Source: Aliivibrio sifiae
GTDB lineage: Bacteria; Pseudomonadota; Gammaproteobacteria; Enterobacterales; Vibrionaceae
Reading direction: 5' to 3'
Length of the DNA stretch: 64,000 nucleotides
Assembly: GCF_002954705.1 (NCBI RefSeq)
Contig: NZ_MSCO01000001.1
Location: 958,939 to 1,022,938 of the forward strand
Below are positions 18,454 through 20,153 of this stretch, piece by piece. The position numbers and the translations under genes were made by a program. The notes under the pieces were generated by a model that was given only the letters and a program-made list of their open reading frames with translations, was not told where the DNA came from and did not search any database. Each line of letters starts with the position of its first letter. The first letter of the stretch is position 1.

Positions 18454-18582
18454 TTATTCCTCCTCTGAAACTAGGGTTGTTTGTTCTTGTGGTTCGGGAT
18501 CGCCAACGGGACGATAATCATCGTAATTACTGCATGCAGAAAGCAGCGAGATAGTTATGAGTAGTGAAAAGCGTAACAACAT
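18454..18582 (-). CDS. 42-residue lipoprotein gene inside the T6SS operon
   Basis: A very short gene not recognised as a named Tss or Tag protein. The chain opens MLLRFSLLITISLLSACSNY: a positive residue, a hydrophobic stretch and a clean lipobox (LSAC, cysteine 17) with Ser at +2, which favours outer-membrane sorting. The mature peptide is only about 26 residues, acidic and rich in Glu, Gln and Pro. GGAGAT inside the last codons of vasH is its ribosome binding site, the gaps are 2 bp to vasH and 1 bp to tagH, and its own last codons supply the tagH ribosome binding site. Such tight packing argues that it is really translated. It may assist TssJ or the envelope complex, which is inference only. 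Confidence 0.8.
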   Translation of the reverse strand: MLLRFSLLITISLLSACSNYDDYRPVGDPEPQEQTTLVSEEE

Positions 18583-18584
18583 GC

Positions 18585-20153
18585 TTAATATCTCCATTCC
18601 TTGGCGGATAAGTTAAATTTTCTTAATCGATAATCAAGTGAGCCCTTTGAAAGCTCCAATCTATTTGCAACCGTTTGAAGGTGTCCTTGGTGTTTTTCTA
18701 AATATGCCATTAGAACTGTTTTTTCAAATTGTTCGATTTGAGAAGAAAGACTGCCAGTTTGTTGGTTTTCATTCTGTCTCTGAGGGGTCATCATCATGAG
18801 TTCGTTCAAGACTTGAATAATAACGATTTTGTCTAGTTTCTTACTTTCAGGAGCCTCCATACAACAACGTTCAATGATATTTTTGAGTTCACGGACGTTA
18901 CCGGGAAAAGAATAGGTTGTTAGATATTCAATAAACTCTTTGGTTAATTCGGGAGTTGCTTGATGTTGTTCTTGCGCGTAATTGTTGGCAAAGAAATGGC
19001 TGAGTAATGCCACGTCACCTTCTCTTTCTCTTAGAGCAGGAAGGGCAATAGGGAATTGAGCTAATCGAAAATAGAGATCTTGGCGAAATTCCCCTTGTTC
19101 TATTTTCTTTATTAAAGCTTGATGTGTTGCTGAAATGACTTTTACATCAACATCATAAAGGGTGGTTGAACCAAGAGGCCTCACTTTTTTTTCTTCTAAT
19201 ACACGAAGTAATTTAGCTTGTAATGAACTCGGCATATCACCAATTTCATCCAAGAAAAGAATGCCTTTATCTGCCGAGCGTATTAGTCCTATGTAATCTC
19301 TGTCTGCTCCTGTAAATGCGCCTTTTTGATATCCAAATAATTCACTTTCTAATAAATGTTCTGGAATCGAGGCGCAATTTTGAACGACATAAGGTTCGTT
19401 TCTACGATTACCAAATTGATGAATGGCTTTTGCTATCAGCTCTTTACCACTGCCGGTTTCTCCTGTAACTAAGACATTACGATTAATATGCAGGGCTTTA
19501 GAAATGGTTAAGCGGACTGTTTTTATTGCTTGGCTATTACCAATGATATTGAGATCAGAAGGAATATCTGTATTGTTAGCATACGATGTTAGTTTCGCTT
19601 CTAGTGACTTTTGTTGTTTTTTTAGCGCAGAAGCTAAACGATCGACCGCTAAAGAATTCAGAGTATGGATAGTTTGTCGGTCGCTTTGTTTATAAGAAGA
19701 AAAACTTGGGTAATAGAACATCAGAACTCCAGATACTCTTTGTTGGGAATTCTTTAATGGCATGAATTCGACTTCACCATCAGTTAATGAGTAATGTTCT
19801 GATTGTTCAAAAAGCAAATCCTTAATTTCTTCGCTGCATTGGCTAAAATGAAGATTAAAATTACGTCCTTCTGCCATGCAAAGAGTTAAGGTATTGAATT
19901 CTCGATAATCAGTATTAAGACGTTTATTTTTAACGTGATTATGCTCTAAATAGGTTAATTTAATTGTACGTTGATCATTACGTTGAGTATCACCTTCAGC
20001 CATTTTAAAAAGTTGTGTTCCTGATACTTGAGATAAGAAACAAATGACTTTTTGAGCGCCACTATGTTTAAGAACACCAGATAACCAACATTGGGTAAAC
20101 TCACCCAGCTCGTCGTGTTGGTTATTGACGATACTTTGTCCTTGCTTTTGCAT
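18585..20153 (-). CDS. vasH: Sigma-54-dependent T6SS activator VasH
   Basis: AAA+ enhancer-binding protein that opens sigma-54 promoters, classically those of hcp operons. An N-terminal GAF-like sensor (about 1-190) is followed by the AAA+ domain with Walker A GETGSGKE (near 232), the sigma-54 contact loop GAFTGA (near 277), Walker B ILFLDEIGDMP and arginine-finger region, and a Fis-type helix-turn-helix at the end (LQTVANRLELSKGSLDYRLRKF). It lies 2 bp after clpV and 2 bp before the small lipoprotein gene. No sigma-54 consensus was found in the upstream region of tssA, so its targets are probably unlinked hcp or vgrG genes. Confidence 0.95.
   Translation of the reverse strand: MQKQGQSIVNNQHDELGEFTQCWLSGVLKHSGAQKVICFLSQVSGTQLFKMAEGDTQRNDQRTIKLTYLEHNHVKNKRLNTDYREFNTLTLCMAEGRNFNLHFSQCSEEIKDLLFEQSEHYSLTDGEVEFMPLKNSQQRVSGVLMFYYPSFSSYKQSDRQTIHTLNSLAVDRLASALKKQQKSLEAKLTSYANNTDIPSDLNIIGNSQAIKTVRLTISKALHINRNVLVTGETGSGKELIAKAIHQFGNRRNEPYVVQNCASIPEHLLESELFGYQKGAFTGADRDYIGLIRSADKGILFLDEIGDMPSSLQAKLLRVLEEKKVRPLGSTTLYDVDVKVISATHQALIKKIEQGEFRQDLYFRLAQFPIALPALREREGDVALLSHFFANNYAQEQHQATPELTKEFIEYLTTYSFPGNVRELKNIIERCCMEAPESKKLDKIVIIQVLNELMMMTPQRQNENQQTGSLSSQIEQFEKTVLMAYLEKHQGHLQTVANRLELSKGSLDYRLRKFNLSAKEWRY

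What the first reader, a model, noticed from the sequence alone, without database searches (positions are those of the whole stretch)
18454..18582. Unannotated 42-residue lipoprotein locked into the T6SS operon
The gene has a perfect lipobox, a ribosome binding site inside the vasH end, gaps of 2 and 1 bp to its neighbours, and its own last codons form the tagH ribosome binding site. The mature peptide is only about 26 acidic residues. It is too short for most gene callers and does not match TssJ, which is also present. It could be a TssJ helper, a secretin-like or peptidoglycan adaptor, or a translational coupling device.
Basis: partly seen in the sequence, partly recalled or inferred. Interest (0 to 1): 0.65.

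Follow-up and report, generated by a model that had tools for sequence, protein, structure and literature searches.

The report
Tiny conserved lipoprotein of a T6SS
A 42-codon gene squeezed between two genes of a bacterial contact-killing machine encodes a real, well conserved miniature lipoprotein, the counterpart of a Pseudomonas gene called orfX whose removal was reported to impair secretion but whose job is unknown.

Summary
Minus strand 18582-18454 encodes a 42-residue lipoprotein precursor (mature part 26 residues from Cys17), 2 bp after vasH and 1 bp before tagH. It is a gene under purifying selection: mature pN/pS is 0.14 in the genus. It sits beside 11 of 11 close tagH genes in 247 genomes of the window's family, and beside 80 of 80 TagH loci kept from a genome scan (79 Pseudomonas/Stutzerimonas, one MAG; the best 80 of 545). 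All 80 share a lipobox and YRPLG. On a TagH tree carriers form one clade (100/100); 34 TagH sequences of other clusters lack the gene. In Pseudomonas it has the place of 'orfX' (PSPTO_5423, PA1664). A published in-frame deletion of PSPTO_5423 impaired Hcp2 secretion; I found no assigned function. So it is a new member of a named but uncharacterised family, here recognised as a predicted outer-membrane lipopeptide. Translational coupling fails as the main function: in Pseudomonas tagH has its own ribosome site after the stop, yet the peptide is conserved. Best mechanism, inferred only: an outer-membrane-anchored clamp or assembly factor for the TssJ-TssM envelope complex, working like VirB7/TraN in type IV secretion.

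The parts
18454..18582 (-). small lipoprotein gene (OrfX-type), 42 codons plus stop
   Evidence: ORF, conservation, purifying selection
18535..18582 (-). signal peptide, residues 1-16 (MLLRFSLLITISLLSA)
   Evidence: AlphaFold2 model shows helix 2-15
18532..18534 (-). lipobox cysteine C17 (LSAC); residue +2 is Ser, predicted outer membrane
   Evidence: +2 never Asp in 50 distinct mature peptides; sorting rule is general knowledge
18496..18516 (-). YRPVGDP, the family motif YRP(L/V/I)G-x-P
   Evidence: YR in 50 of 50, motif in 49 of 50 distinct mature peptides
18592..18595 (-). GGAG ribosome binding site of the small gene, inside the 3' end of vasH
   Evidence: sequence
18459..18464 (-). AGGAGG ribosome binding site of tagH, inside the last codons of the small gene
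   Evidence: sequence
18585..20153 (-). vasH, sigma-54 activator
   Evidence: PF00158, PF02954
17166..18452 (-). tagH, FHA protein
   Evidence: PF00498, PF20232, TIGR03354
16640..17131 (-). tssJ, outer-membrane lipoprotein (start codon not settled)
   Evidence: PF12790, TIGR03352
15306..16628 (-). tssK
   Evidence: PF05936, TIGR03353
10938..14459 (-). tssM
   Evidence: ORF; no family model was run; name by place and size and by matches of this protein in Pseudomonas T6SS loci

Best explanation
It is the orthologue, in the window's (Vibrionaceae-like) T6SS, of Pseudomonas OrfX: a translated, lipid-anchored, mostly unstructured peptide of about 25 residues facing the periplasm from the outer membrane. 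It is an obligate accessory part of one T6SS subtype (the P. aeruginosa H2 / P. syringae HSI-II kind). Most likely it acts at the trans-envelope complex encoded just downstream (TssJ-TssL-TssM): its lipid holds it in the outer membrane and its YRPxGxP segment grips TssJ or the periplasmic end of TssM, helping the complex assemble or stay stable, as VirB7/TraN does for VirB9 in type IV secretion. Shown here: the gene, its conservation, the selection on it, its linkage to one TagH clade, and the position identical to orfX. Published in another organism: deletion impairs Hcp secretion. Inferred: translation, outer-membrane location (Ser +2), the partner, and the clamp or assembly role. Rough odds: orthologue of OrfX and translated lipoprotein 0.93; TssJ/TssM assembly factor 0.45.
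For: Lipobox with +2 never Asp and YR in 50 of 50 distinct mature peptides. Mature pN/pS 0.14 (7 distinct genus sequences) and 0.21 (37 distinct Pseudomonas-type DNA sequences from 80 loci). Present in 11 of 11 family genomes with the close TagH, which are also the only strong hits among 247, and in 80 of 80 TagH loci kept from the named scan, where the order orf-tagH-tssJ-tssK-tssL holds in 80 and tssM follows in 79, the 80th contig ending first. A profile without any Pseudomonadaceae-type row still picks out the motif frames: with only the mature part of window-family rows, 109 of 115 hits at E 10 or better carry YRPxG (109 loci searched; best motif hit 0.001, best other 0.54). The gene stays with tagH-tssJKL(M) in 11 of 80 loci where no vasH lies upstream, so it goes with the envelope module, not with the activator. 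One TagH clade, 100/100. PSPTO_5423 (orfX), between sfa2 and fha, is needed for Hcp2 secretion; cellular Hcp2 was missing or low only in the hcp2, sfa2 and tssF2 mutants (PMC7283901). The place and syntax match in Pseudomonas syringae PA-6-8C (L207) and P. viridiflava (L209, L225). PA1664 likewise lies between sfa2 (PA1663) and fha2 (PA1665), and its transcript moves with the cluster.
Against: No peptide has been detected. The sequences of PSPTO_5423 and PA1664 were not retrieved; the link rests on position in named P. syringae-group records. The text of the deletion paper has no occurrence of 'complement' or 'polar', so an effect on downstream fha is not excluded, and it does not single out this mutant in competition; it also says secretion mutants did not always lose inhibition. 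One paper's table labels OrfX 'secreted by Type VI' (PMC3946381) and another calls fha2 and orfX 'effectors' (PMC11200925), labels that do not fit a fixed envelope part. No direct evidence names TssJ or TssM as partner. AlphaFold2 gives no fold for the mature part. Similarity to VirB7/TraN is not significant (E 0.098, signal-peptide region only). With the full window-type profile only 33 of 109 Pseudomonas-type loci reach E 1e-3 and the weakest true frame (2.6) scores below some TssJ signal peptides (0.05).
Confidence: 0.5

Rival explanations
1. Envelope-side accessory of the threonine-phosphorylation pathway: a periplasmic sensor or tether, in the way outer-membrane TagQ serves the P. aeruginosa H1 system (TagQ recalled, no call), working upstream of PpkA/TagH.
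For: Directly 5' of tagH in the loci opened; phosphatase- and kinase-like genes close the cluster in the window and in L281.
Against: TagH and the short 320-aa kinase of the window look cytoplasmic (inference, not tested), so a periplasmic lipopeptide has no obvious contact with them; TagH of other clusters lack the gene, and 14 of the 19 such loci have a kinase gene next to tagH.
Confidence: 0.2
2. Adaptor between the outer membrane or peptidoglycan and the machine, replacing a TagL-type anchor rather than clamping TssJ/TssM.
For: No separate peptidoglycan-binding gene is listed in the OrfX-bearing cluster L281, though that gene table is incomplete (it omits tagH itself).
Against: No peptidoglycan-binding family matches, and the mature peptide is modelled as coil.
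Confidence: 0.15
3. Lysis-type or envelope-stress lipoprotein (colicin-lysis-like or entericidin-like) that loosens the envelope for the machine.
For: Similar size; one of 22 members touches PF02402 Lysis_col at E 0.0018 and one touches entericidin B at E 0.01.
Against: These weak hits are to short lipoprotein families and are shared by few members; the YRPxGxP motif and the T6SS linkage are not explained.
Confidence: 0.05
4. Substrate or effector exported by the T6SS.
For: Labels only: 'OrfX (secreted by Type VI)' in PMC3946381, 'effectors (fha2 and orfX)' in PMC11200925.
Against: No experiment for it in the passages seen; fha2, labelled alike, is a regulator; the lipobox predicts membrane anchoring; Hcp2 secretion itself is impaired without PSPTO_5423.
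Confidence: 0.04
5. Only a translational coupling device that carries the tagH ribosome site; the peptide itself is irrelevant.
For: In the window and its genus the tagH Shine-Dalgarno lies inside the last codons.
Against: Amino acids, not bases, are conserved (pN/pS 0.14-0.21); in 80 of 80 scan loci the stop is 16-20 bp before tagH, with AAGGAG after the stop in the 12 commonest spacers, 75 of 80 loci.
Confidence: 0.03
6. Spurious ORF.
For: Short; no Pfam or NCBIfam family matches the window copy.
Against: Purifying selection and conservation across two families and a third (L012).
Confidence: 0.01

Closest known systems
OrfX of Pseudomonas H2-T6SS / HSI-II (PA1664, PSPTO_5423)
   Same: Same place between the sigma-54 activator (sfa2/vasH) and fha/tagH, followed by tssJ-tssK-tssL-tssM; Pseudomonas loci at this place encode a lipoprotein with the YRPLG-x-P motif.
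   Different: Window copy lacks about five residues (GNYKF) after the cysteine region, has Val for Leu in the motif, an acidic tail, and a frame that ends 1 bp from tagH.
VirB7 / TraN / LvhB7 (type IV secretion)
   Same: Tiny lipoprotein of a trans-envelope secretion machine; analogue in manner of working only, by inference.
   Different: No significant sequence match (TraN E 0.098, LvhB7 best E 0.071); no second cysteine, whereas VirB7 is disulfide-linked to VirB9 (PMC3213119 passage).
LptM, LPS translocon maturation chaperone
   Same: Small lipoprotein; weak profile matches for 6 of 22 members, best E 0.0011.
   Different: No match for the window copy and 15 other members; genomic context differs.
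TssJ (SciN/VasD), T6SS lipoprotein
   Same: Lipoprotein of the same operon.
   Different: TssJ is a separate protein encoded two genes downstream and matches its own models.
TasL of Vibrio fischeri T6SS2
   Same: Lipoprotein linked to a Vibrio T6SS.
   Different: About 380 kDa, promotes cell-cell contact, other cluster (PMC9972734 passages).

Membership tests
OrfX of Pseudomonas HSI-II / H2-T6SS | Lies between the sigma-54 activator and fha/tagH | tested here: met
   for the window; published order sfa2-orfX-fha (PMC7283901)
OrfX of Pseudomonas HSI-II / H2-T6SS | Sequence homology with the Pseudomonas protein at that place | tested here: met
   profile with no Pseudomonadaceae-type row; full-length 33 of 109 loci at E 1e-3 or better, all 109 motif frames at E 10 or better; mature part alone 109 of 115 hits carry YRPxG, best motif 0.001, best other 0.54. 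Short, so moderate statistics; place and motif add to it
OrfX of Pseudomonas HSI-II / H2-T6SS | Identity of the family with the very sequences PSPTO_5423 and PA1664 | not tested
   those records were not among the loci obtained; P. syringae PA-6-8C and P. viridiflava stand in
OrfX of Pseudomonas HSI-II / H2-T6SS | Needed for Hcp secretion | not testable with these tools
   reported for Pst DC3000 only
TssJ (PF12790 / TIGR03352) | Match to the TssJ models | tested here: not met
   0 families for the small protein at E 0.1, while its neighbour matches
VirB7 / TraN type IV lipoprotein | Significant sequence similarity | tested here: not met
   best E 0.098 (TraN, profile positions 8-25 only) and 0.071 (LvhB7, 2 of 22 members)
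VirB7 / TraN type IV lipoprotein | Binds and stabilises an outer-membrane core subunit | not testable with these tools
   no complex prediction available
LptM | Match of the window copy to the NCBIfam model | tested here: not met
   0 families for member 1; 6 of 22 members weakly, best E 0.0011
Outer-membrane lipoprotein (general) | Lipobox with a non-Asp residue at +2 | tested here: met
   LSAC-S; +2 never Asp in 50 of 50 distinct mature peptides

The most novel reading that the evidence does not exclude
One whole subtype of T6SS has an overlooked obligate envelope part: a 25-residue lipopeptide whose YRPxGxP segment clamps or matures the outer-membrane end of the TssJ-TssM complex. It would be among the smallest machine parts of any secretion system and a convergent T6SS answer to VirB7 and LptM.
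Probability: 0.4. Interest if true: 0.7.

Novelty: new member of a known kind. Interest (0 to 1): 0.5.

Why it matters
The T6SS membrane complex is usually told as TssJ-TssL-TssM. A lipopeptide of about 25 residues that is found beside every close tagH examined (11 of 11 and 80 of 80), and whose Pseudomonas counterpart is reported to be needed for secretion, points to a missing part of the envelope complex in this T6SS subtype. The conserved motif makes the question directly testable by point changes and crosslinking, and the gene is short enough to be missed by callers with a length limit.

Tried and rejected
Translational coupling as the main role: rejected, because the stop-to-tagH distance and the site of the Shine-Dalgarno change between families while the peptide is kept.

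Accessory of VasH: rejected, because in 11 of 80 scan loci no vasH match lies in the upstream flank and the gene stays with tagH-tssJ. One of these, L176, has clpV directly upstream; the other ten show neither clpV nor vasH. The upstream flank was 3.5 kb except in L201 and L237, where it was 2.85 and 0.85 kb.

Weak profile hits: L092 (MltD-like, name recalled) and L280 (a larger unrelated lipoprotein) were noise. The other hits at E 1e-4 to 0.05 were taken as generic lipoprotein signals from score and length and were not opened.

Natural fusions with TssJ: none seen among the hits opened, but no dedicated search was made.

Partner hints in TssJ: in 68 distinct TssJ of OrfX-bearing loci plus the window's, a few columns and a longer C-terminal tail differ from 11 TssJ of OrfX-lacking loci of the window's family. 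The 11 are too few and too related, so I give this no weight.

Structure: AlphaFold2 on the 22-row alignment gives only the signal helix, mean pLDDT 78.3. Complexes cannot be folded with these tools. The PDB sequence search gave nothing significant.

An unrelated 'orfX' (PA4469, sodM operon, PMC3224232) was set aside.

Papers. Full sections read: PMC7283901 sections 15 and 16, PMC9972734 section 5. Passages only: other parts of those two, PMC8855297, PMC9846239, PMC3224232, PMC3213119, PMC7146990, PMC11200925, PMC10413270, PMC6532553, PMC3946381, PMC9602442, PMC3842833. The rest were seen as search listings. In what I saw, no paper calls OrfX a lipoprotein or shows a function beyond the secretion defect; searches, an open-licence library only. 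All six papers that one search lists for PA1664 were opened at the passage.

One search was a submission with a format error of mine.

Full report
WHAT IS THERE. The minus strand of the window carries a T6SS cluster in the order tssB, tssC, tssE, tssF, tssG, clpV, vasH, small gene, tagH, tssJ, tssK, tssL, tssM, pppA, ppkA. I ran family models on vasH, tagH, tssJ and tssK and on the kinase- and phosphatase-like genes (below curated cut-offs but E about 1e-39); the other names rest on place, size and, for some, matches in Pseudomonas T6SS loci. The small gene runs from ATG 18582 to TAA 18454 and reads MLLRFSLLITISLLSACSNYDDYRPVGDPEPQEQTTLVSEEE. The gaps are 2 bp to vasH and 1 bp to tagH. GGAG inside vasH precedes it, and AGGAGG in its own last codons serves tagH. 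An in-frame ATG five codons upstream has AAGGA abutting it without spacing.

IT IS A GENE. Within the window's genus, 14 genomes are held (own plus 13). The profile finds the small gene in 9, and the same 9 have the close TagH; the other 5 have neither. Over 7 distinct DNA sequences from the genus, pN/pS is 0.187 for the whole frame and 0.139 for the mature part. In the family sample (247 genomes) 11 genomes hit at E 1.9e-21 or better and the next hit is 2.9e-4. The close TagH (E 2.3e-75 or better; next genome 2.0e-36) is found in exactly the same 11.

HOW FAR IT GOES. A class sample searched with the first 10-row profile gave strong hits only in the own genome and in G204, which was already in the profile, out of 369; the other hits up to E 0.05 were taken as noise. 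In the family of G204, 31 of 99 genomes match at E 1e-4 or better. That family is Pseudomonadaceae by inference: the small peptides of two of its genomes equal those of named Pseudomonas jinjuensis and P. citronellolis records. I opened 30 loci, and in 30 of 30 a tagH follows directly; a vasH-like gene lies in the 1.5 kb before it in 17 of 30. In one genus of that family 7 of 25 genomes match at E 0.001 or better. All rows of that alignment were carriers, so the 80 lean to this subtype and the other 465 were not seen. All 80 have the small gene with lipobox and YRPxG; vasH is upstream in 69. The order small gene-tagH-tssJ-tssK-tssL holds in 80, and tssM follows in 79. A third family is represented by L012. 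In a phylum sample, 13 of 398 genomes hit at 1e-5: the window's own, 11 in the G204 family, and one false match, G917.

ARE THE TWO KINDS ONE FAMILY? The first profile held one Pseudomonadaceae-type row, so I repeated the test without any. Against 15,257 frames from 109 Pseudomonas-type loci, the full-length profile puts 33 loci at E 1e-3 or better; all 109 YRPxG frames score E 10 or better, but the weakest (2.6) lies below some TssJ signal peptides (best 0.05). With the mature part of window-family rows only, 109 of the 115 hits carry the motif; best motif hit 0.001, best other 0.54. For so short a peptide this, with the identical place, is good but not overwhelming evidence.

WHERE IT IS ABSENT. 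Among 29 TagH-like loci opened from a class sample of 276 genomes (one of them, L060, under the curated cut-off), only the window's own and L031 have it. Nineteen further TagH loci of the window's family lack the YRPxG motif; tagH is preceded by a divergent kinase gene in 14 and by tssG in 2. A tree of 55 TagH proteins (21 with, 34 without) puts all carriers on one side of one branch with support 100/100; the tool warns of some long branches and uneven make-up. Some of the 21 were found through the small gene itself, so the cleaner counts are the 11 of 11 and 80 of 80 found through TagH.

WHAT THE PEPTIDE LOOKS LIKE. Fifty distinct mature peptides are 20-29 residues long, 48 of them 24-27. YR occurs in 50, YRP(V/I/L)G-x-P in 49, residue +2 is never Asp (so outer membrane by the general sorting rule), and there is no second cysteine. 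AlphaFold2 gives the signal helix and a coil. No Pfam or NCBIfam family matches the window copy.

WHAT IS KNOWN. In Pseudomonas syringae pv. tomato DC3000 the gene between sfa2 and fha is orfX, PSPTO_5423, 'unknown function' (PMC7283901). Its in-frame deletion impaired Hcp2 secretion. [quoted passage not shown] it does not single this one out. The text has no occurrence of 'complement' or 'polar'. In P. aeruginosa orfX is PA1664, between sfa2 and fha2, with no definitive function assigned (PMC9846239; PMC6532553). Its transcript, and that of PSPTO_5423, appears with the rest of the cluster in expression tables. Two papers label it as secreted or effector without evidence in the passages seen. 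A Pseudomonas frederiksbergensis plasmid annotates its copy as 'type VI secretion protein'. For Vibrio fischeri FQ-A001, Table 1 of PMC9972734 lists T6SS1 with ClpV 05470 and Fha 05455; two tags between them, 05465 and 05460, are not listed. By the order here they would be vasH and this gene. That is my inference.

MECHANISM. The gene follows the tagH-tssJKLM module even where no vasH is next to it, is periplasm-facing by its signals, and its Pseudomonas counterpart is needed for secretion. The most economical reading is a lipid-anchored assembly factor or clamp on TssJ/TssM. This works like VirB7/TraN, but the sequence test for membership is not met. The partner and the action are inferred. 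Coupling of tagH translation may be a side role in the window's family only.

VERDICT. Real, conserved, tied to one T6SS subtype, and a new member of an already named but uncharacterised gene family. Its description as a conserved outer-membrane lipopeptide was not found in the papers searched or in the passages opened.

Noticed in passing
L001 (G013) against L002 (own genome), locus position about 3600, inside tagH: The first 3,600 bp (vasH side) differ from another species of the genus at 9 positions, while about 100 of the 110 mismatches counted by BLAST fall in the last 960 bp: a sharp recombination breakpoint inside the T6SS cluster.
   Followed up: partly
L276 (G725): Apparent T6SS remnant: a short tssF match, then the small lipoprotein gene, a partial tagH match, pppA and ppkA; the small gene is still open.
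   Followed up: partly
G000:C2:408387-409739 and G000:C2:372372-373298: The same genome holds a second, distant TagH and a second VasH-like activator on another contig; the only strong profile hit for the small gene in this genome is the one in the window.
   Followed up: no
L176 (Pseudomonas fluorescens PS662): clpV is followed by the small gene with no vasH match between them, unlike the 69 other scan loci that have clpV upstream.
   Followed up: no
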